This document shows positions 31,872 to 42,846 of a DNA stretch of 64,000 bases, piece by piece. Within the stretch, counting starts at the first letter, position 1, and every line of letters starts with the position of its first letter. Origin of the DNA: Treponema sp. (GTDB lineage: Bacteria > Spirochaetota > Spirochaetia > Treponematales > Treponemataceae); NCBI GenBank assembly GCA_016290335.1, contig JAEETM010000002.1, positions 1 through 64,000 of the forward strand, written 5' to 3'. Under the pieces are notes generated by a model. That model did not search any database. It saw nothing but the letters and a program-made list of their open reading frames with translations, and was not told where the DNA came from. The position numbers and the translations under genes were made by a program.

Positions 31872-33875
31872 TTATTTCGCCTTTGTTTTCTTTACAGTTG
31901 TAATTGTAAAGTTAATTGTTTTTTCAGTTTCCATACCAGGTTCAATTTCTACATTCCAGAACATAGTATTTAAGAATGTCATATGAACTGGTACAATGTT
32001 TTCTCCGTTGAAATCAGGACGTTTAAAAATCATAGGATAGTAACAGAAATTGCAGTTTTCATTCGGTTCAAATCCAAAGGAAATACCGCTTTCAGAATCT
32101 GTAAGACGTATTGTATTTACATTAGAAAGCTTGTTGCTGCGGTTTAAGGCTTCTGTGCTCTTATCAGCTTCTATAACAAGCTTTTCATCATTATCAATAA
32201 CTTCAAGATTATAATAGGTTAAATTATCTGAATCAAAATTAGTATGAGCAAAATTGTTTTCTACCGCAAAAACAGCCTTAAAAGGTCTGTCGCTGTCATT
32301 CTTCAAAATATATTGAATAATCATTCCGTTTGAATTGATTATGTATTTTTTGCGGAGATAAAGCTTTTGCTTTGTCGGCTTAAACACTGCTTCGGCATAA
32401 AGCTGAACCTCATGGTGATTCTGTGCATATTTTAATTCCGAATACCGTATTTTCGAGAAAACACCATCACCGGCCGGTTTTGCGGAAATGTATTTGTCAA
32501 AATCTTCTTGAGTAAAAATATGGTCAATAAACAATCCGCGTTCGTAATCATCTGAATAACCGTCGTATTCCTGAACCCGAGAATAATTGTCTGCATAATT
32601 TCCTGTATTTTTTAATACTTCAAGCTCCTGAATTGCTCCACCCATAAGTGAAATAAATGCAAAATAATTCTGCATACGGCAAACATATTCATCAAGACCA
32701 TCGTAATTATAATCAAAACAGTTTACAGATTCTGTAAAATTGGAGTTTTCACGGAGGATTTTTTCAACCTCCATAAGGTTCTTATAGGCAAGCTGTCTGT
32801 CTTTTGTGTTAAAGAATATTCCTTTAGGATTACATATTAAAGCAATTCCATTCTGTGCCTGCCACAGCTTTTCCCTGGCTGCTTTCTTGCGCATTTTATC
32901 TTTCTTATACATATTCACAAGCATGCTCATATAAATCACTTTATTATAAAGCTTGTGACTGAGAGGATAAGAGTTCATAAAATCACTGACAGTAACTGAA
33001 TAATTCTGTTTGTTTTCTGCATCTTGAACAGTCTGATTTGTCCACTTTGCAATAGTACTGTTTATGCCGGCAGAAATATTATATGGGATTCTTGTAGAAA
33101 CCTTTTTGCCATAAATACAAGGTGTAGAAAGATTGATTCTAGTCTCGTTGTTTTTCAGATAATCCAGTAAAGCTTCAAACCAGCCCTTTTCCATCAATGA
33201 CTTAAAGTGCTCGAGATTAAAACTTATATTTACAATTCTTTCCGGTTCATACTGGAGATATGTATCTTTCTTTTCAACCTTCTCTACCTGCTTGATTATG
33301 TTCTTAATAAAATCTTCAGGTGATGTTTCATCATCTGGTAAAAGATTATCATAGTAAGGATAAATGTCTACAGATTTTCCTAAATCACTCATTATGATTG
33401 GCAGGAATCTACGTTTATCTGGCGGAATAAGGCTGCTTTCAAGCAATGAATATTCAATACCGCAGCTCTGCAGGCTGTTTACTAATGATGAATCCCAGCA
33501 ATCTTCAAAAAGAGAAATACCACGCGGACGATTACCTGTTGTCTGACGTATTTCTGCAGAAAGTAAATCTATCTGACCGGTTCGGTCAACCGGATAAATC
33601 AAAGGAAGGACCGGAGCATAAAAACCACCGCCAAGTATTTCTACCTGTTTTCGTGCAACGAGATCTTTTAAAATTGAAATAAACTCATTTCTTTTCTTTT
33701 TAAGATACTGTAACTGAGGCCCTGTAAAAGATAATGATAAAGAAAAAGACTGATTTGAATATAAAAATCTTATTAAAGGCTTATATACACTCTGATAAGC
33801 TTTATCAAACTCATCCAAAGCGGTAAAAGTATTTGTAAACGATTTTAAACTAAAACAAACGTATATCGGATTCAT
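31872..33875 (-). CDS. Glycoside hydrolase family 57-like protein with C-terminal beta domain
   Basis: 667-aa protein like GH57 alpha-amylases/4-alpha-glucanotransferases. The region EILGGGFYAPVLPLIYP (about 79-95) is the conserved GH57 core, and LFEDCWD holds the presumed nucleophile Glu124. Where the family normally has a DDGEKFG-type segment with the catalytic Asp, this protein reads FNLEHFK (219-225), so the acid/base appears lost. A helical middle follows, and a beta-rich C-terminal domain (about 430-660) resembles the DUF1926 domain of such enzymes. There is no signal peptide, so it is probably cytoplasmic. It may be a glucan-binding or altered-specificity protein. A TATATT box ends five bases before the ATG. 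Confidence 0.78.
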   Translation of the reverse strand: MNPIYVCFSLKSFTNTFTALDEFDKAYQSVYKPLIRFLYSNQSFSLSLSFTGPQLQYLKKKRNEFISILKDLVARKQVEILGGGFYAPVLPLIYPVDRTGQIDLLSAEIRQTTGNRPRGISLFEDCWDSSLVNSLQSCGIEYSLLESSLIPPDKRRFLPIIMSDLGKSVDIYPYYDNLLPDDETSPEDFIKNIIKQVEKVEKKDTYLQYEPERIVNISFNLEHFKSLMEKGWFEALLDYLKNNETRINLSTPCIYGKKVSTRIPYNISAGINSTIAKWTNQTVQDAENKQNYSVTVSDFMNSYPLSHKLYNKVIYMSMLVNMYKKDKMRKKAAREKLWQAQNGIALICNPKGIFFNTKDRQLAYKNLMEVEKILRENSNFTESVNCFDYNYDGLDEYVCRMQNYFAFISLMGGAIQELEVLKNTGNYADNYSRVQEYDGYSDDYERGLFIDHIFTQEDFDKYISAKPAGDGVFSKIRYSELKYAQNHHEVQLYAEAVFKPTKQKLYLRKKYIINSNGMIIQYILKNDSDRPFKAVFAVENNFAHTNFDSDNLTYYNLEVIDNDEKLVIEADKSTEALNRSNKLSNVNTIRLTDSESGISFGFEPNENCNFCYYPMIFKRPDFNGENIVPVHMTFLNTMFWNVEIEPGMETEKTINFTITTVKKTKAK

Positions 33876-33968: not shown

Positions 33969-34595
33969 TTATTTAAATCTTACGCCCTCTAATAGTGGCT
34001 TTATAATTTTATAGCAATATGCCCATATTTTAAAGTACTTTTTTTCATTCCATTCAAGTTTTTTTACTTTTTGTTTAGAATTACAGCTTGTTAAATCATT
34101 TTCTGTATTTGTACAAAGGGCAAGCTCTTTTGTAGTTTTAGGTACAAGCTTTATTATTTTCTTTGGACAAACTTCTGCACAAATACCGCATCCAATACAG
34201 CTTGAAGTTACAACTGCTGTCTTGTTTTTTATAACTATAGCCTTCTGAGGACACGCTTTTGCACAATCCCCCAAACCAATACAGGCAAACTTACAGTCTG
34301 TACCCGAATCGCTTAGGGAGTTTACAAGAAAGCAGGAATGCTCAGAATTAAAGATTTCCCTTTTGCAATTAAAGGTTTTATCACAGGCACAAAGAACAAC
34401 AGCCTTATTTTCATTAGGAACAAAGCTTTCTCTTTCAGGCTTGATGTAATCCTTTTCAATATCAGAAATTACAGGGTCTTCTTTTACATCCTTTAAGTTC
34501 TTTCTAATTGATGGAAACAGAATGTAAAAAAGAAACAGAATCAGAAGAGTTGTTATAATTATGATTAAAATCAAAAGTATTGTGTATAAAATCAT
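33969..34595 (-). CDS. RnfB-like polyferredoxin subunit
   Basis: 208-aa membrane-anchored iron-sulfur protein. An N-terminal membrane helix (about 5-28) is followed by a Cys set matching the central part of RnfB: CACDKTFNC, then CKFACIGLGDCAKACP and CIGCGICAEVCP, i.e. at least two [4Fe-4S] clusters. The N-terminal cluster domain that opens RnfB proteins (GANCGxCGxxGC type) is absent, and the chain stops soon after the second cluster. The start overlaps the RnfA-like gene by four bases (ATGA). It is the last gene of the operon. Confidence 0.82.
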   Translation of the reverse strand: MILYTILLILIIIITTLLILFLFYILFPSIRKNLKDVKEDPVISDIEKDYIKPERESFVPNENKAVVLCACDKTFNCKREIFNSEHSCFLVNSLSDSGTDCKFACIGLGDCAKACPQKAIVIKNKTAVVTSSCIGCGICAEVCPKKIIKLVPKTTKELALCTNTENDLTSCNSKQKVKKLEWNEKKYFKIWAYCYKIIKPLLEGVRFK

Positions 34596-35152
34596 TTTAT
34601 TACCTCTGGATTAAGCCAAATTACATCCCAAACAGAAATAATGAATATCAGAATTGCAATGAACAGAAGGAATCTGCTGTAGAATTTTTCTTTTGAAATA
34701 TTATCATCTCTGGATCTTTCTTTGAATGAATAAATGAACGGACACAAAAGTACAAGTGCTGCAAGACAGCTTCCCGAAATAACAAGAGTGTTCAAAAGCG
34801 AAGTACTTTCCATAACTGATAAAAGAATTATCAGATAGCTGAACAAAAACTCTGAGGTTGATTTATTTGTGGTGATTCTTGTGAGCGCTTCCATAAAGGT
34901 TGTTACGCAGGTGTAGAGTAAAAAGCATACAACCGGAAACAGCTCAACTATATGAAGCGGTATGAGAATCATTGATGTAAGCAGCCAGGAGAAAACTGTA
35001 GAAAGCAGAATCGAAATAATAACCTTTATCATATAAGTTATTGTCTTTGTTTTGAAAAGGTTCAGATCGATTAGCTGATTTATACCTATTCCGTAAAAAA
35101 GAATTGTACTGGCAAAGCAGGTATAATATAAAAAGGAACTTAAAAGACTCAT
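34592..35152 (-). CDS. RnfA-like membrane subunit
   Basis: 186-aa protein with about six membrane helices, in the RnfA position of a C-D-G-E-A-B gene order. Known RnfA proteins carry one Cys in the first helix (GICPFLG type) and one in a later helix (NCAVLG type) that bind the membrane [2Fe-2S] cluster. Here the first-helix site reads YGIGINQLIDL with no Cys; a Cys near YTCVTTF may match the second. Assignment rests on position, size and topology. It overlaps both neighbours by four bases. Confidence 0.65.
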   Translation of the reverse strand: MSLLSSFLYYTCFASTILFYGIGINQLIDLNLFKTKTITYMIKVIISILLSTVFSWLLTSMILIPLHIVELFPVVCFLLYTCVTTFMEALTRITTNKSTSEFLFSYLIILLSVMESTSLLNTLVISGSCLAALVLLCPFIYSFKERSRDDNISKEKFYSRFLLFIAILIFIISVWDVIWLNPEVIK

Positions 35153-35766
35153 TTAGATTCCTCCGCTTTTTTTACAATGTCTGTTCTGTTTCTGTAGAAC
35201 GAGTGAATTGAAAGAAGTATTGCAGAAAAAATAAGGGCACCCGGAACAGAAGCAATTATTGAAAAAAGTCCTGTTCTTTCTGCCTTGATTATTACTTTTT
35301 CGTAAATCTGGTGGCCGGTACCAAAGAAGGTAAAAGTTCCGTAACCAAAAATATCTCGTACAAGGAAAAATAAAAGAGCGAAAACAGAATAAATCAGGGT
35401 TTGAATCATATTCTTATTAAGACGCTCTGAAAGCTTTTTTTCTGTATCTGAAAAAACATAACCGATTGAATAAAACGAAAGCGGTATTACATAAATTAAA
35501 AAGCCGAGTGTAAGGACAATCTCTGGCTGCATAAGAATGATTATCTGCCTGTACAGGATTGTGGCGGCCAGCATTAAAAACAATACTGTTACACTCTGCA
35601 ATTCATCCAGTTTAAGCTTTTTTACAAGCGAAACAGATAAGGTTCCCATAAGAACAATAAAGTTTAATTCAACTACAAGTACAAAGCCATAAACAAAACG
35701 GCCGGGAGCAAGAACAAGCATCATCAAGGCTGTGGCTAAAAAAACATAAGTAGATTTTCTTTTCAT
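35149..35766 (-). CDS. RnfE-like membrane subunit
   Basis: 205-aa polytopic protein in the RnfE position. About six hydrophobic helices; the sequence contains no cysteine at all. The two cluster-binding cysteines of known RnfE subunits are therefore missing. It begins 10 bases after the RnfG-like gene and overlaps the RnfA-like gene in an ATGA. Identity as RnfE rests on gene order, size and topology; sequence resemblance is weak. Confidence 0.62.
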   Translation of the reverse strand: MKRKSTYVFLATALMMLVLAPGRFVYGFVLVVELNFIVLMGTLSVSLVKKLKLDELQSVTVLFLMLAATILYRQIIILMQPEIVLTLGFLIYVIPLSFYSIGYVFSDTEKKLSERLNKNMIQTLIYSVFALLFFLVRDIFGYGTFTFFGTGHQIYEKVIIKAERTGLFSIIASVPGALIFSAILLSIHSFYRNRTDIVKKAEESK

Positions 35767-35776
35767 TTTCTCCTCT

Positions 35777-36247
35777 CTATTTACCTGTTTTTCCGATTAT
35801 CTGTGGAATCTTATTTTTCCAGTATTCAATCTGTTTTTCTGAATAATTATTCTGTAAAAGAAGATTTATTCTGCCGTGTAAAGATGAATAACCTATAAAG
35901 CTTACGTTATTTTCACTGTCGCAAACAAAAACAACTGCAAGGGGACCGTATAAGGTAGCACTTCTTATGATTACAGCATCATAAAGTTCGCCGTTACGTC
36001 TGTTTCTTGCTTCATAGCAGGCAGCATTCATACATACAGGATTTTTAATCGGCTTGCTGTTTCCTACTGTCCACTGGTTGGAATCATAATCATCAAGAAC
36101 TCTCTCAATTGAAACCTTAAGATTGTTATTCCACGATTTTTTTGAAACAAGAGAAAAGTAAACAAGAATCATCAGGACAAGTGCAACTATACCTATAAAT
36201 ATTCCGTAATTCTTAAAAAATGTTTTATAAGAAATATCATCCATCAT
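35777..36247 (-). CDS. RnfG-like periplasmic subunit, short form
   Basis: 156-aa protein with one N-terminal membrane helix (about 12-31) and a small periplasmic domain. The stretch AVIIRSATLYGPLAVVFVCD followed by GRINLL resembles the first half of the FMN-binding domain of RnfG. The chain then ends, without the C-terminal SGAT-type motif whose Thr carries covalent FMN. Position between RnfD- and RnfE-like genes supports the assignment. Confidence 0.65.
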   Translation of the reverse strand: MMDDISYKTFFKNYGIFIGIVALVLMILVYFSLVSKKSWNNNLKVSIERVLDDYDSNQWTVGNSKPIKNPVCMNAACYEARNRRNGELYDAVIIRSATLYGPLAVVFVCDSENNVSFIGYSSLHGRINLLLQNNYSEKQIEYWKNKIPQIIGKTGK

Positions 36248-36262
36248 TTTTCAATACATCCT

Positions 36263-37324
36263 TTACAAGTTTACTGTCTGCTTTAATAACAGGGCTTCAT
36301 TTCTTTTTTCTTCTACAACTCTAATAAGAAGATTAATAACATTGCATATAACAACTGTATAAATCATACCGATTGGAGAAGTTCCGCAGCCGGCTATTGC
36401 AAATGCAAGCACTCCGGCTAAAACTCCATATAAAATCTTTCCACTAACCGAAACTGGATGTGTGCCAAACCAGCATAAGAGGAAGAATGCTGTAAACAAG
36501 GTTCCACTTGTATTAAGTGCCAGTATCACGTCTCCCTGATTCACTACTCCACCAACAAGAATCGGGAATAAAATCCTTACAAGCAGAGCATAAGTAAAAA
36601 TAAAGATAAAAGGAATTATTCCTGAGTAATAATCATCTGCATATAAAACTACAGAAGCAAGCAAGGTGAGCAGATTAAACCTGAAGGCTGGGATTATTGA
36701 ATGAGTATCGCATAGTAAAGAAATATAGCCTTCCGGTAAAGTTACTTTAAGCCAGGAAAAAAGAGTGTTATTCAAAAAGTTTGTAATAAAAGTATCAAAG
36801 CCGTAAACTGGGAATACTCCGTTATTAATCATAATTGTAGAAGGATTTTTCAAAGCAATTATATCTGAGGTAATAAGAAAATCTGGGAAAAATCTTTTAC
36901 CAATAAACCAGGCAATTATAACGGCTATAGCAACAATGTTAATCCAGGTGGTAATGCATTTTTCAAAAACAAATCTGGAAAGAGTTATTACAAAAAAAGA
37001 AATACAGAAGGCTGTAAATACCGGATAAGTTTGTGGTAGAAGCATTCCAATTAGAATACCCTGAACAAGCGAAACTATTCCGGTGTAAAGGTGGCGCCGG
37101 TAAACAAGATAACTTAAGGCAAAAGCAGCTAAAGCACCTATTGTTGTTGCAATTATTACATTTATGGCCTGGAAGCTCTTTGTTATAAAAAGCATTACAA
37201 TCTGCAAAAGAAGAAGTACAAGTACCCTTATCATTACAGAAGAAATTGAAGGTGTTTTAAAAACAAAAGGATTCGGAGCAACTTTATTTTTTAGGATTTT
37301 GCTGTCTGAATAATTATTTTTCAT
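36263..37324 (-). CDS. rnfD: RnfD-like membrane subunit
   Basis: 353-aa polytopic protein of the NqrB/RnfD family, about nine helices. The family pattern is visible in the C-terminal half: QGDVILALNTSGTLFTAFFL followed by HPVSVSGKILYGVLAGVLAFAI and a final ICNVINLLI helix. The segment that should hold the flavinylation motif (SGATPL type, just before DTHSIIPAF) reads LKVTLPEGYISLL and has no SGAT. It overlaps rnfC by 11 bases and ends 15 bases before the RnfG-like gene. Confidence 0.8.
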   Translation of the reverse strand: MKNNYSDSKILKNKVAPNPFVFKTPSISSVMIRVLVLLLLQIVMLFITKSFQAINVIIATTIGALAAFALSYLVYRRHLYTGIVSLVQGILIGMLLPQTYPVFTAFCISFFVITLSRFVFEKCITTWINIVAIAVIIAWFIGKRFFPDFLITSDIIALKNPSTIMINNGVFPVYGFDTFITNFLNNTLFSWLKVTLPEGYISLLCDTHSIIPAFRFNLLTLLASVVLYADDYYSGIIPFIFIFTYALLVRILFPILVGGVVNQGDVILALNTSGTLFTAFFLLCWFGTHPVSVSGKILYGVLAGVLAFAIAGCGTSPIGMIYTVVICNVINLLIRVVEEKRNEALLLKQTVNL

Positions 37325-38624
37325 TCTTTTCTCCTGCGAGTTTTTCTTTTAAGATTGAAATTGTCTGTGTAAGAGGAAGTCTTGAAGGACATACTGAATT
37401 ACAGAGTCCACATTCTGTACACAGTGCAACAGATTTTATAAATGCTTCCGGAACAGCTTTTCTGTCATTCATATAAGCATAAATAATATCAGGCGAGATT
37501 TTTACCTGACAGGCAAAACGGCAGTTTCCGCAATGAATGCAGTTATAAATCTGATAGTCAAATATGTTTTTCTTTGAAATGAACTCAACAGATTTAACAT
37601 TTTTTGTAATTGGAACATCCATGCTGTTTACAGAGCTTCCACAGACTGCTCCGTTTATAATAATCATTGAAGGTTCGTGTACAAAACCGCCAAGCTGAGT
37701 AACAAGCTCCTTTAAGGTAAAACCGATTTTAACCTTTAAGAAGCAGGATGCAGAAAGACAGTTTCCTGTGAGCTGTACGTAAGTAGAAATCGAAGGAACA
37801 TCGTATACCAGAGCATTTTCTACGTTAAGCATTGTGTAGGAATCTGTAAAAAGATCTTTTGCAGAAATTGTAAAATCGCATGACTTTTTAAGGCTTTTAT
37901 TAAAGCTGCTTATAATTTCTCTTTTATATCCTGCAGGATAATGATTTATGCGGTTTTTAAGAAGATAGATTTTTTGTCCTTCAATAAGTGCTGATATTTC
38001 ATCAACGTTTGTTTTTACATCTGCTACAAGTACAATATTCCCTGTACCAATCATTTTTGCAGTAAGCTTTGCACCTTCTATAATTTTTGCCGCATAAAAC
38101 TTTGTCAAAAGCGAATCTGAAAGTCTGAGCTTATCTTCATCATAAAGCCTGATAATTAAAGTACGTTCTTTTCTGTTTTCCAGATTATTGATTTGCCACG
38201 AAAGAGATTCAGGTTTTGAGATTAAAAACGTATTTATGATTCCCTTATCAGCAATTTTTGTTAAAAGGTCCTTTGCAGGGATATTGGATAAATCTGCTTT
38301 TCTGAGTTTTTTACCGGTAAATGAAAACTTACCTTCCAGTTTGATTTTAACTGCTTTTTCATAATGGCCACTTGGAGTAAGCGTTGTTACAATATCAATA
38401 ACTTTACCGGGAATTGGTGAATGGATTTTTGAAAAGCTTTCTGCTTCTCTGTCTGGAATTGCTATAACGTCGCCTTCCTGAACAAAATCACCTGCTTTTA
38501 CAAGACAAAGATAATTACACTTTTTATCCTGCTTTAATTGAACGGTAACTACTTTTGGTAAAAAGGCATTTTCAGAAAACTTATATTTTTTCAGTTCTGT
38601 TGGTACAACCTGATAAGCAGCCAT
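37314..38624 (-). CDS. rnfC: RnfC-like iron-sulfur subunit
   Basis: 436-aa soluble subunit. The N-terminal barrel-sandwich region (about 20-95, with HSPIPGKVIDI) and two C-terminal [4Fe-4S] motifs (CIHCGNCRFACQ at about 365, CTECGLCNSVCP at about 402) match RnfC. The middle domain aligns in outline (EGAKLTAKMIG) but the NADH/FMN site of known RnfC (GGAGFPT followed by ECEPY) is replaced by KGIINTFLISKP and RLYDEDKL. It thus keeps clusters but lacks a recognisable nucleotide/flavin site. Its start overlaps the stop of the upstream membrane gene by one base. Confidence 0.85.
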   Translation of the reverse strand: MAAYQVVPTELKKYKFSENAFLPKVVTVQLKQDKKCNYLCLVKAGDFVQEGDVIAIPDREAESFSKIHSPIPGKVIDIVTTLTPSGHYEKAVKIKLEGKFSFTGKKLRKADLSNIPAKDLLTKIADKGIINTFLISKPESLSWQINNLENRKERTLIIRLYDEDKLRLSDSLLTKFYAAKIIEGAKLTAKMIGTGNIVLVADVKTNVDEISALIEGQKIYLLKNRINHYPAGYKREIISSFNKSLKKSCDFTISAKDLFTDSYTMLNVENALVYDVPSISTYVQLTGNCLSASCFLKVKIGFTLKELVTQLGGFVHEPSMIIINGAVCGSSVNSMDVPITKNVKSVEFISKKNIFDYQIYNCIHCGNCRFACQVKISPDIIYAYMNDRKAVPEAFIKSVALCTECGLCNSVCPSRLPLTQTISILKEKLAGEKNEK

Positions 38625-40066
38625 TATTTACCTCCCTTTCGTTTAATTACTTTATGTTTTATCATAGTTGAAAAATAAATAAAGAGTAACATAGCAAAGC
38701 ATACAAACATCATTATAATGCTGAAAAGACTTACATGATAAGAACCGGCAGAAACATAACCGCATGTAAAATCGCTTCCCTGAACCTTTATTACTTTTTC
38801 AATCGATTCAAAATCAAGGTCATCTATATTTTTAAAAATACTAGTTTTAAAGCCTTCATCATAAGTCAGATAATCATCTTTTTCTGTAATAATTCCATCC
38901 GTAACTACATAATCAGGAAAAACTACAGTTTCATCATCATAATAATTCAGATTAAGAGATTTATAAGGCAAAGTAACTACATCCCAGTTCCATCTGTAAA
39001 AATCTTCAAGCTGTGGCAGCTCCTGTGCCTGTACTTCAGCTTTTCCAGGTATAAAGATTGCCTTTGATTTTTTTGTAAGTCCCGAGTTTGTAACATTGGA
39101 AAAAGTAAAGTAAAGTATTACAAGAACAATACTTGCAGTTGCTATTGGCATTACAATTTTTCCGTTTCCGCCGAATACCTGAATCATTTTTGCAGGTCGG
39201 ATAAATACAGGATTAAAGGAATATCGTTTTGCGCGGGCTTCTTTTATTGCTAAGAAAAGATAAATTATCAGTGCTGTTGCAATAAGTGTAAGAATGAAAA
39301 ATACACCGGAAAGTATTGAACCTGCAAAAGCACTCAAAATTGAAAGCGCAATTATAAATGCAACAATAAGCCCTTTAGAAAGATATTTTATTACACCCTT
39401 TCTTCCAAGCAGGTTGGAAATAAAGAATAACGCTATGTAAAGAAGTATTACGGCTGCTGCAGATGAATAAAAAGGATTACAGAAAACGTATAAAACAGGA
39501 ATTAAACATTCAAAAACAAAGAAAAACTTGTTTTTAGAAAAGAAAGCAAGCATTATCATGAGGACTGAAACAATTATCGGAAGCAGCCAGGGATAGGAAT
39601 AGGAACTGTCTGATCCTGCTTCTATGTTTTCGTGTTCAAGAAAATGAATGCAGGCATCTATGTTTTTTTTGTATTCTTCCGGGATGTAAATAAGCTTGTA
39701 TTTTCCTGTTGAATCATAAAAATAATTGTTACGGAACTTAAGATAATCGGTAATGCTTTCATCTGAATTATTTTTGCCTGTGTGACTGCTGTAAAGTCCC
39801 ATTTTTAGCATTGCCATTTCTACGGAGTTTTCAGAAAGCATAATCGGTATGTGCTGTTCTTCAAGGCTTACATACTCTGTAATACCGGCGTTCTTTAAAA
39901 TATTAGAAACGACACCTGTATTGGCAGATGCCGGAACGTAAAGAACCGAGTAATTATTCCAAAGTTTTCCGCTGGGTACGGATCTGAAAATTACAAGCAG
40001 TGCAATTATGATTAAGACTGCCGGTAAAGCCATATATTTCTTTATATTTTCTTTTTTCAATTTCAT
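38624..40066 (-). CDS. Unrecognised membrane protein cotranscribed with the Rnf-like genes
   Basis: 480 aa, no family recognised. One N-terminal helix (about 10-28) leads to a periplasmic domain (about 30-150; contains YVPASANTGVVSN and a later KYKLIYIPEEYKK). Then come about six helices (about 155-325), a second periplasmic domain (about 330-440, acidic, Tyr/Asp-rich) and a last helix (about 450-470). There are few cysteines and no cofactor motif. It sits 4 bases after the PAP2-related gene and overlaps rnfC by one base, so it belongs to the same operon. It may be an extra subunit or assembly factor of the Rnf-like complex; this is inference from position only. Confidence 0.75.
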   Translation of the reverse strand: MKLKKENIKKYMALPAVLIIIALLVIFRSVPSGKLWNNYSVLYVPASANTGVVSNILKNAGITEYVSLEEQHIPIMLSENSVEMAMLKMGLYSSHTGKNNSDESITDYLKFRNNYFYDSTGKYKLIYIPEEYKKNIDACIHFLEHENIEAGSDSSYSYPWLLPIIVSVLMIMLAFFSKNKFFFVFECLIPVLYVFCNPFYSSAAAVILLYIALFFISNLLGRKGVIKYLSKGLIVAFIIALSILSAFAGSILSGVFFILTLIATALIIYLFLAIKEARAKRYSFNPVFIRPAKMIQVFGGNGKIVMPIATASIVLVILYFTFSNVTNSGLTKKSKAIFIPGKAEVQAQELPQLEDFYRWNWDVVTLPYKSLNLNYYDDETVVFPDYVVTDGIITEKDDYLTYDEGFKTSIFKNIDDLDFESIEKVIKVQGSDFTCGYVSAGSYHVSLFSIIMMFVCFAMLLFIYFSTMIKHKVIKRKGGK

Positions 40067-40070
40067 TATT

Positions 40071-40559
40071 CTACATGAGCAATGAGAATGAAAGGCCGAT
40101 TAAAAAACCAAGTACACAGCCAAGAATAACCTGTAATGGTGTATGACCGTCTACTTCCTTTATTGGTTTATATTTTTCAATTGCCTTACTTTCTGCAAGC
40201 TCCTTACCAAGTTCATTCAGTTTATGTGCCTGTATTCCGCTTGAATGACGAACACCAAAAGCATCTCGTATTGTTACAAAGAAAACTACAAGACATAACA
40301 TAAATAAATCGGAATTAATACCGTTTCTGAAGCCTATTGTTGTACAGATTGAAGCTACAAGAGCCGAATGACTTGATGGCATTCCTCCTGTTTTCCAGAA
40401 CAAATTCTGTGCAAGTTCAGAAAAGGAATGTATGCGTCCGTGAATAAGATTTATGATTGTTTTTATAAACTGAGCGCCTAACCAGCTGAAAATACCGGCA
40501 AGGAAAATCGGATTTGTAACAAACATTTTTAATTGTTCACGTGTATTAGATAACATCAT
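40071..40559 (-). CDS. Divergent PAP2-family (DUF212/YuiD-type) membrane protein
   Basis: 162-aa integral membrane protein related to PAP2 phosphatases. GGMPSSHSALV and FGVRHSSGIQAHKLN are the signature blocks of the divergent family. First gene of the Rnf-like operon. The start is one of two adjacent ATGs (40559 or 40556) after AGGA. Substrate unknown; lipid phosphate is the usual guess. An extended -10 promoter lies upstream at 40582-40587. Confidence 0.9.
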   Translation of the reverse strand: MMLSNTREQLKMFVTNPIFLAGIFSWLGAQFIKTIINLIHGRIHSFSELAQNLFWKTGGMPSSHSALVASICTTIGFRNGINSDLFMLCLVVFFVTIRDAFGVRHSSGIQAHKLNELGKELAESKAIEKYKPIKEVDGHTPLQVILGCVLGFLIGLSFSLLM

Positions 40560-41868: not shown

Positions 41869-42846
41869 ATGAAAAATCCTTTTAAGCTTATTTCCCAAAA
41901 GTTCCATCCAACCCTTGTTTATGCTTTAGTTGGAGAAAGCGGTACGGGTAAAAGTTATCATTCAAAGCTTCTCGCCGAAGAATATGGAATTGATGCCATT
42001 ATTGATGACGGACTTCTTATTCAGGATGAAAAAATTATTGCCGGCCATTCAGCAAAACGTGAAAAAACTTATATGGGAGCTGTTCGAGTTGCCCTTTTCG
42101 ATGATAAGGAACACCGCGATTCAGTCGCAAAAGTATTAAAAAAAGCCCACATAAAAAAACTTCTTATTCTTGGAACTTCAGAAAAGATGGTAACAAAAAT
42201 TGCCATGCGATTGCAGCTTCCCCAGCCTTCAAAAATCATACACATTGAAGAAATAGCATCCAAGGAAGAAATAGAAAAAGCCGTAAAATCTCGCCAGGTA
42301 GAAGGAAAACACGTAATTCCTGTTCCATCAATCGAGGTAAAAAAATCTTATCCGCAGATATTTTCAAACTCAATGCACGATTTTTTCAGCAAAAAAAACA
42401 TTTTCAGTAATTTGAGAAAAAACAGCGGAAAGATGATTGAAAAATCTATTGTTCAGCCTGAGTTTTCAAAAAAAGGTCGTGTAGAGATTTCAGAAGCTGC
42501 ACTAACCCAGATGGTAACTCATTGTGTTTCTGAATGTGACCCTGAAGTTAAAATCAAAAAAATCTCCATCAAAAAAGATTCACGCGGTTATAAAATAATT
42601 GTAACAATAGACGTTCCTTTCGGCACACAACTTACAGGAAAAGTTCATAAGCTTCAGCAGTATATAATTGACAAGATAGAAACCCTTACAGGCATTCTGA
42701 TTGAAGAAGTAAGTATTGTAATCGACAAAATCACAAAGGTAGAAACTCCTGTCGTAGAACCTGAAAAAAAGCAGAATCTAGACTTTTTAAAACAAACTCT
42801 CGCCCGCTTTCACATCGATAAAACTACCCCTGAAGACAAAAAGTAG
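41869..42846 (+). CDS. P-loop protein fused to an Asp23/Gls24-like domain
   Basis: 325-aa cytoplasmic protein. The N-terminal domain has a clear Walker A motif, GESGTGKS (22-29), then IIDDGLLI, suggesting a small nucleotide-binding or kinase-like fold (about 15-160). The linker is Lys/Ser-rich. The C-terminal domain (about 203-295) starts GRVEISEAALTQMV and continues through GYKIIVTIDVPFGTQL to ITGILIEEVSIVID-type sequence, the pattern of the Asp23 envelope-stress family. The combination is unusual. It sits between an rRNA pseudouridine synthase and a poly(A)-polymerase-type gene, hinting at RNA or envelope housekeeping, but no function is assigned. Confidence 0.8.
   Translation: MKNPFKLISQKFHPTLVYALVGESGTGKSYHSKLLAEEYGIDAIIDDGLLIQDEKIIAGHSAKREKTYMGAVRVALFDDKEHRDSVAKVLKKAHIKKLLILGTSEKMVTKIAMRLQLPQPSKIIHIEEIASKEEIEKAVKSRQVEGKHVIPVPSIEVKKSYPQIFSNSMHDFFSKKNIFSNLRKNSGKMIEKSIVQPEFSKKGRVEISEAALTQMVTHCVSECDPEVKIKKISIKKDSRGYKIIVTIDVPFGTQLTGKVHKLQQYIIDKIETLTGILIEEVSIVIDKITKVETPVVEPEKKQNLDFLKQTLARFHIDKTTPEDKK

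What the first reader, a model, noticed from the sequence alone, without database searches (positions are those of the whole stretch)
33969..38624. Rnf-like operon whose proteins have lost the canonical electron-carrying motifs
Seen: gene order C-D-G-E-A-B with RnfC-, RnfD- and RnfB-like proteins recognisable. RnfC lacks the GGAGFPT and ECEPY blocks of the NADH/FMN site; RnfG ends before the SGAT flavinylation motif; RnfD has no SGATPL; RnfE contains no Cys and RnfA lacks the first-helix Cys, so the membrane [2Fe-2S] cannot form as known; RnfB lacks its N-terminal cluster domain. Only the [4Fe-4S] motifs of RnfC and RnfB persist. Known: in characterised Rnf these sites carry electrons from ferredoxin to NAD. 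Inference: a different machine has evolved from Rnf, perhaps one that does not reach NAD or uses non-covalent cofactors.
Basis: partly seen in the sequence, partly recalled or inferred. Interest (0 to 1): 0.8.

Follow-up and report, generated by a model that had tools for sequence, protein, structure and literature searches.

The report
Electron pump stripped of its wiring
Treponemes keep an operon descended from the Rnf electron-driven ion pump in which nearly all residues that hold the membrane electron carriers have gone while two cytoplasmic iron-sulphur sites are kept, so it likely no longer makes NADH or pumps ions as Rnf does and would work instead as a redox-responsive membrane machine.

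Summary
C, D and B are clear Rnf homologues; A and E match RnfA and RnfE specifically, but only by profile; G has RnfG's place and, weakly, its fold. Across relatives the RnfC NADH/FMN motifs, the four membrane [2Fe-2S] cysteines and the RnfD flavin threonine are almost all lost, whereas the eight RnfC [4Fe-4S] cysteines stay (91 of 91). Canonical treponemal copies, aligned as controls, keep them. The order PAP2-X-C-D-G-E-A-(B)-GH57 is kept in 80 of 80 related loci; the genes are under purifying selection; RnfB is absent from some. Of 47 genomes with a strong match, 41 also carry canonical RnfA/E; 6 do not, and 5 of these lack any FMN_bind match and 3 lack ApbE. Other Spirochaetota have a canonical rnfCDGEAB directly before the same GH57 gene; synteny and a four-protein tree make the eroded operon its in-place descendant, with intermediates. 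A genome of Treponema pallidum's size has only the eroded form, without RnfB, at odds with the published NAD-reducing Rnf pump there. Function is inferred: a redox-gated membrane complex.

The parts
40071..40559 (-). PAP2-like (DUF212) membrane gene, first gene of the conserved cluster
   Evidence: PF02681 4.6e-39; found in 69 of 80 related loci, gap to X at most 60 nt in 68 of 69
38624..40066 (-). X, 480-aa membrane protein; predicted fold resembles a shortened half of an RND-superfamily transporter
37314..38624 (-). RnfC-like: two [4Fe-4S] motifs kept, FMN/NADH motifs lost
   Evidence: TIGR01945 1.7e-49; 8 Cys in 91 of 91 rows, ECEPY lost; best solved chain 7zc6_C RnfC 6.7e-29
36263..37324 (-). 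RnfD-like: covalent-FMN Thr and IGET Glu lost; one riboflavin Asn (N129) kept
   Evidence: PF03116 1.4e-29
35777..36247 (-). G: short protein in the rnfG position, RnfG-like in predicted fold, without an SGAT motif
35149..35766 (-). RnfE-like, no Cys at all
   Evidence: hhalign to canonical RnfE 96.9; family profile hits RnfE/NqrD of solved complexes, best 4.6e-07
34592..35152 (-). RnfA-like, both [2Fe-2S] ligand Cys lost
   Evidence: hhalign to canonical RnfA 91.2
33969..34595 (-). RnfB-like: two Fer4 cluster motifs kept, N-terminal cluster domain lost; gene absent in some relatives
   Evidence: NF005503 1.5e-18
31872..33875 (-). GH57/4-alpha-glucanotransferase-like gene that follows the cluster; active-site residues poorly kept in relatives
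   Evidence: PF03065 3.4e-21; 1k1w_A 1.1e-24; found in 70 of 80 loci, the other ten contigs ending before its place

Best explanation
By synteny and tree the operon is the in-place descendant of a canonical spirochaetal Rnf operon; it has lost nearly all ligand residues of its transmembrane electron path and its NAD/FMN motifs, and it likely acts as a redox-responsive membrane complex instead of an NAD-reducing ion pump. Shown by sequence: homology of C, D, B (strong) and E, A (profile level), loss of ligands, conservation of the two RnfC [4Fe-4S] motifs, conserved operon, purifying selection, presence in genomes without ApbE or FMN_bind matches, shared place with canonical rnf operons. Inferred: a low-potential carrier (ferredoxin or flavodoxin, through RnfB where it exists) reduces the paired clusters of RnfC; the electron stays on the cytoplasmic side, at most reaching a non-covalent flavin beside RnfD Asn129; reduction changes how RnfC holds the RnfD-E-A membrane barrel and so gates it, with G as periplasmic cap and X, where present, as a partner. 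No electron would cross to the periplasm and no NADH would form.
For: Ligand loss against canonical controls. RnfC 8 Cys in 91 of 91 rows and in 133 of 134 rows of a wider alignment that includes canonical rows (the exception, L157, is a doubtful RnfC). Gene order kept in 80 of 80 loci, most neighbours overlapping or within 60 nt. dN/dS 0.01-0.26 over all genes in the nine pairs computed (of 14 chosen); window versus L001: A 0.045, D 0.057, E 0.087, G 0.043, C 0.152. Of 47 genomes with a strong D match 6 lack PF02508; 5 of these 6 lack FMN_bind against 0 of 41, 3 of 6 lack ApbE against 0 of 41; G001, the genome of the locus nearest to the window, lacks PF02508 and ApbE. Canonical rnf-GH57 operons in other Spirochaetota (another order shown for G370/L155) and tree: eroded plus GH57-linked canonical rows support 99.9; eroded with treponemal canonical rejected, p-AU 0.000164. 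In A. woodii, mutating the membrane-cluster Cys, RnfG Thr185, RnfD Asn123 or Asp249 abolishes activity (PMC11889175, passages).
Against: No activity, cofactor or complex was measured. On RnfC alone the AU test did not reject a clade with the treponemal canonical copies (p 0.117). A and E homology is remote; G is positional plus a weak fold match. Loss is not complete everywhere: 5 of 93 RnfE rows keep the first Cys, and the early branches L164 and L153 keep all four membrane Cys. RnfD Asn123 equivalent is kept in 97 of 98 rows and Asp249 in 9 of 10 added early or deep rows, so a flavin and an electron step may remain. Conserved RnfC clusters and acidic residues at the old ECEPY site could mean a new electron acceptor rather than a switch. 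Most genomes are drafts of unknown completeness, so absences may be gaps. The gating step has no direct evidence.
Confidence: 0.5

Rival explanations
1. It is still an electron-transfer enzyme, shortened: electrons pass between the RnfC [4Fe-4S] pair and a single non-covalent riboflavin in RnfD, and on to an unknown acceptor, possibly still moving ions.
For: RnfD Asn123 (A. woodii numbering) kept in 97 of 98 rows and in 10 of 10 added eroded rows, Asp249 kept in 9 of those 10; C. tetanomorphum has riboflavin 11.7 A from RnfC cluster 2 (PMC9588780, passages); eight RnfC Cys conserved.
Against: Asp249 equivalent is Trp in 74 of 98 rows and its alanine mutant is inactive in A. woodii; no acceptor site was recognised; the [2Fe-2S] and both covalent FMN sites are gone in the window.
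Confidence: 0.22
2. It is redox-dead: the Rnf membrane barrel was recruited as a scaffold or transporter for envelope lipids or glycans with the RND-like X, the PAP2 protein and the GH57-like protein, and the RnfC clusters are only structural.
For: Steady linkage to PAP2, X and GH57-like genes; X resembles RND proteins in fold, weakly; RnfD topology is likened to urea and ammonium transporters (PMC9588780, passages).
Against: Eight conserved cluster Cys in an otherwise diverged protein argue for redox use; the GH57-like gene already stands beside canonical rnf; X was not found in L115 and several other loci.
Confidence: 0.2
3. It is an accessory or regulatory assembly of the canonical Rnf that most of these bacteria also have.
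For: 41 of 47 genomes carry both.
Against: It is present without a PF02508 match in 6 of 47 genomes, in G001 and G009, and in G029.
Confidence: 0.05
4. It is a decaying pseudo-operon.
For: Many canonical residues are lost; one match each in G050 and G108 spans a stop codon.
Against: Order kept in 80 of 80 loci with open frames found for most genes, dN/dS far below 1, its own invariant residues, kept in the 1.14-Mb genome G029.
Confidence: 0.02

Closest known systems
Rnf complex (RnfABCDGE, ferredoxin:NAD+ oxidoreductase)
   Same: Gene order C-D-G-E-A-B, homologous C, D, E, A, B, RnfG-like G; RnfC clusters
   Different: No FMN/NADH motifs in C, no [2Fe-2S] ligands in A/E, no FMN threonine in D or G, RnfB shortened or missing; extra X, PAP2 and GH57-like genes
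Na+-NQR
   Same: Also thought to come from an rnf operon that lost rnfB (PMC4014512, passages read)
   Different: Mirror image: NQR keeps the membrane [2Fe-2S], FMNs and riboflavin, and its RnfC homologue NqrA has no redox cofactors (PMC12174285, section 12 read); here the membrane sites go and RnfC keeps its clusters; no NqrF-like gene in the cluster
Two-subunit Nqr/Rnf-like flavinylation complexes
   Same: RnfD-like subunit without the covalent FMN site (PMC11334425, passages read)
   Different: Those keep a flavinylated NqrC/RnfG-like subunit and a NAD-binding domain; here neither is found, and RnfC, E and A remain
'Noncanonical RNF' proposed for Treponema pallidum
   Same: Very likely the same locus: tp0151 is named rnfD (PMC11371664, passages); G029/L115 carries the eroded operon
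   Different: It was proposed to pass electrons from flavodoxin to NAD+ and drive a gradient (PMC7512555, passages); the only Rnf-like genes found here lack the sites for that

Membership tests
Rnf complex | Homologous subunits C, D, G, E, A, B in one operon | tested here: inconclusive
Rnf complex | RnfC FMN and NADH motifs (GGAxFP, ECEPY) | tested here: not met
   0, 0, 1 of 91 keep Glu, Cys, Glu; canonical 18 of 18; GGAxFP lost in the rows shown
Rnf complex | Four RnfA/E cysteines for the membrane [2Fe-2S] | tested here: not met
   RnfE 5 and 2 of 93, RnfA 0 and 2 of 85; canonical 18 of 18; none in the window
Rnf complex | Covalent FMN threonines in RnfD and RnfG | tested here: not met
   RnfD Thr in 4 of 98, canonical 18 of 18; G of the window has no SGAT-like motif; canonical RnfG has Thr in 17 of 18 aligned rows, Ser in L140
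Rnf complex | Riboflavin ligands Asn123 and Asp249 in RnfD | tested here: inconclusive
   97 of 98 and 9 of 98; window has Asn129 and Trp285
Rnf complex | Two [4Fe-4S] clusters in RnfC | tested here: met
   motifs in 91 of 91
Rnf complex | Ferredoxin:NAD+ activity with ion transport | not testable with these tools
   needs biochemistry
Na+-NQR | NqrF (FAD and 2Fe-2S subunit) in the operon | tested here: not met
   no such Pfam match among the nine cluster proteins
RND superfamily (protein X) | RND-type fold | tested here: inconclusive

The most novel reading that the evidence does not exclude
A whole respiratory ion pump shed its electron wire in place, starting at the NAD end, and was kept across an order of spirochaetes, the syphilis agent included, as a new redox-gated membrane machine whose only redox centres are the cytoplasmic iron-sulphur clusters; T. 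pallidum then has no Rnf pump.
Probability: 0.4. Interest if true: 0.85.

Novelty: new variant of a known kind. Interest (0 to 1): 0.72.

Why it matters
Rnf and NQR are understood as chains of cofactors that carry electrons through the membrane and back. Here evolution removed the chain and kept the protein body, a natural test of what the body does without it. It also bears on an open question in syphilis biology: published models give T. pallidum a flavodoxin:NAD+ Rnf pump (PMC7512555, PMC10194888, passages read), yet the only Rnf-like genes found in the genome of that size lack RnfB, the NAD motifs and the membrane cofactor sites. Public records name relatives of this D 'RnfABCDGE type electron transport complex subunit D', so metabolic models of treponemes may credit this operon with a pump that is likely not there.

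Tried and rejected
Rejected: motifs present but displaced (merged alignments and hhalign: not found). Rejected: duplicate of the treponemal canonical rnf; RnfC alone did not decide (p-AU 0.117), so four proteins were joined and the test repeated (p-AU 0.000164). Rejected: unrelated membrane complex. Weakened: covalent FMN on another threonine of D (Thr181, kept in 90 of 98): L001 and L131 keep that Thr although their genomes G001 and G141 have no ApbE match. X as a late addition was dropped: an X-like ORF precedes a canonical rnf-GH57 operon too (L155, E 6.7e-16). GH57 as an active enzyme was doubted: residues aligned with the catalytic Glu and Asp of 1k1w (catalytic roles recalled) are kept in 4 and 8 of 86 eroded-locus rows, 3 and 1 of 7 intermediate rows, 1 and 2 of 11 canonical-linked rows; that alignment is loose. 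Promoter/terminator and tRNA scans gave nothing useful. Foldseek gave no match at E 0.001 or better for G or X. A search for NqrB N200/N203 found no paper.

Literature for novelty: the listings showed no paper describing this erosion; most subscription papers are not held, and Deka et al. 2015 (10.1128/mBio.00519-15) was not readable.

Rows dropped: ORFs under length limits and HMM hits above 1e-3 before the counts; early-branching loci L153 and L159-L168 were fetched later and are not in those counts but; RnfB not picked in 5 of 18 canonical loci; near-copies thinned before the trees; 5 of 14 dN/dS pairs not run.
Full report
WHAT IS THERE. The minus strand from 40559 to 31872 holds nine genes in one direction: PAP2-like, X, C, D, G, E, A, B, GH57-like. 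C, D and B are recognised by public Rnf or 4Fe-4S models, C and B below the curated Rnf cut-offs; A, E, G and X have no credible Pfam or NCBIfam match. A profile of 25 D relatives found 80 loci in the genome collection (85 matched, 80 kept), titled Treponema or other spirochaetal names. For the genes found, order and strand were kept in 80 of 80, with most genes overlapping or within 60 nt; several missing genes lie beyond contig ends. Nine close pairs gave dN/dS of 0.01 to 0.26 for the genes compared, which speaks against decay; some dS values are near saturation.

WHAT IS LOST AND KEPT. The control was the canonical rnf operon that many of these genomes carry elsewhere (18 regions). Aligned with it, the eroded family lacks RnfC ECEPY (Glu, Cys, Glu in 0, 0, 1 of 91), the membrane-cluster Cys of RnfE (5 and 2 of 93) and RnfA (0 and 2 of 85), the RnfD FMN Thr (4 of 98) and the RnfB N-terminal cluster (0 of 64 for each Cys); canonical rows have these in 18 of 18 (RnfB 13 of 13). 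RnfC keeps all eight cluster Cys in 91 of 91. At the ECEPY place an acidic motif took over. In RnfD the riboflavin ligand Asn123 of A. woodii (mapped through) is kept in 97 of 98, Asp249 in 9 of 98, replaced by Trp in 74. In A. woodii, alanine mutants of either, of RnfG Thr185, or loss of the membrane-cluster Cys gave strains unable to grow and enzyme without ferredoxin-dependent NAD+ reduction (PMC11889175, passages read). No Cys or His reaches 70% conservation in A, E or G, so a replacement cluster is unlikely.

WHERE IT STANDS WITHOUT CANONICAL RNF. Among 146 genomes of the order, the D profile hits 139 (weak hits to canonical RnfD included), PF02508 137, ApbE 139, FMN_bind 137. Of the 47 with a strong D match (E at most 1e-40), 41 also have canonical RnfA/E. 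The other 6 do not; 5 of these 6 lack FMN_bind and 3 of 6 lack ApbE, against 0 of 41 each (Fisher p 3.9e-6 and 0.0012, relatedness not corrected). So ApbE and FMN_bind proteins follow the canonical Rnf, not this operon. G001, the genome of the locus nearest to the window, lacks PF02508 and ApbE. The window's own genome is not held. A profile of eroded E matched 379 of 390 genomes of the order, about 300 of them at E of 1e-25 or better by my count of the table.

ORIGIN. Ten fetched loci (L151, L152, L154, L155, L156, L158, L170, L171, L172, L174) have a canonical rnfCDGEAB directly followed by the same GH57-like gene; L174 also has the PAP2 gene before it. One of them, L155, is shown to lie in another order (the 8 genomes of G370's order); the genomes of the other nine are not among the 390 drawn from the window's order, which makes it likely but not certain that they lie outside it. 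RnfC and RnfA/E sites are complete in these ten, RnfD has Thr in 7 and Ser in 3 at the FMN place, RnfG has Thr or Ser at its place. L173, also GH57-linked, keeps the RnfC and RnfD sites but has lost three of four RnfA/E Cys and has no RnfB: a separate erosion in another order of events. The four-protein tree joins eroded and GH57-linked canonical rows (support 99.9) and rejects a clade of eroded with treponemal canonical copies (p-AU 0.000164; RnfC alone p 0.117). So the eroded operon sits in the ancestral place, and the canonical Rnf of treponemes is another copy. Intermediates: L164, first branch, keeps all four RnfA/E Cys, the RnfD Thr and an RnfG AGAT motif, yet its RnfC motifs are changed; L163 and L165-L167 keep the RnfD Thr but have lost two to four RnfA/E Cys, L165 still with ECE; later branches lose nearly all. 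L153 keeps the four RnfA/E Cys but not the RnfD Thr, so the order was not strict. RnfB is missing in 10 of 70 loci that hold both A and GH57 and beside the operon in most deeper loci.

TREPONEMA PALLIDUM. Its locus L115 holds PAP2-C-D-G-E-A-GH57; X and B were not found. RnfC has its eight Cys and no FMN/NADH motif. The genome has no PF02508 match, no rnfB-model match, one ApbE and two FMN_bind matches. tp0151 is called rnfD in print (PMC11371664, passages) and the complex is proposed to pass electrons from flavodoxin to NAD+ and drive a gradient (PMC7512555, passages; PMC10194888, passages).

HOW IT LIKELY WORKS (inferred). What stays is RnfC with two clusters on a D-E-A membrane body and a G-like cap. 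Canonical Rnf already needs large conformational changes (PMC12174285, section 12). The simplest reading is that a low-potential carrier sets the state of the RnfC clusters and thereby gates the membrane body, without an electron crossing. A short path from RnfC to one riboflavin in RnfD is the strongest rival; a redox-dead scaffold for envelope work with X, PAP2 and GH57-like proteins is next.

VERDICT. Real, conserved, and not an Rnf by its defining sites; new variant of a known kind. The loss is firm, the new job is not known.

Noticed in passing
window 31872-33875 and GH57-like genes of related loci: The GH57-like gene has lost the residues aligned with the catalytic Glu/Asp of 4-alpha-glucanotransferase in most loci, even beside canonical rnf (1 and 2 of 11 kept), so it may be a pseudoenzyme tied to Rnf (loose alignment).
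   Followed up: partly
L173 (G385): A GH57-linked rnf with intact RnfC and RnfD sites but three of four RnfA/E Cys lost and no RnfB found: an independent erosion in a different order.
   Followed up: no
L176, L177: Otherwise canonical rnfC-D-E-A-B operons with no room for rnfG between D and E.
   Followed up: no
window 38624-40066: X looks like a shortened RND-type half transporter; a related ORF stands before a canonical rnf in L155.
   Followed up: partly
G004, G005, G062, G103: FMN_bind matches are numerous (13 to 34 per genome) in some genomes of the order, hinting at flavin-based extracytosolic electron transfer.
   Followed up: no
window 41869-42846: By eye, the P-loop gene near the cluster also lies upstream of the canonical rnf-GH57 operons in L155 and L151, extending the synteny.
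   Followed up: partly
G370 and its order: Eight of eight genomes have four or more PF02508 matches, so two or more canonical rnf/nqr-type operons coexist there.
   Followed up: no
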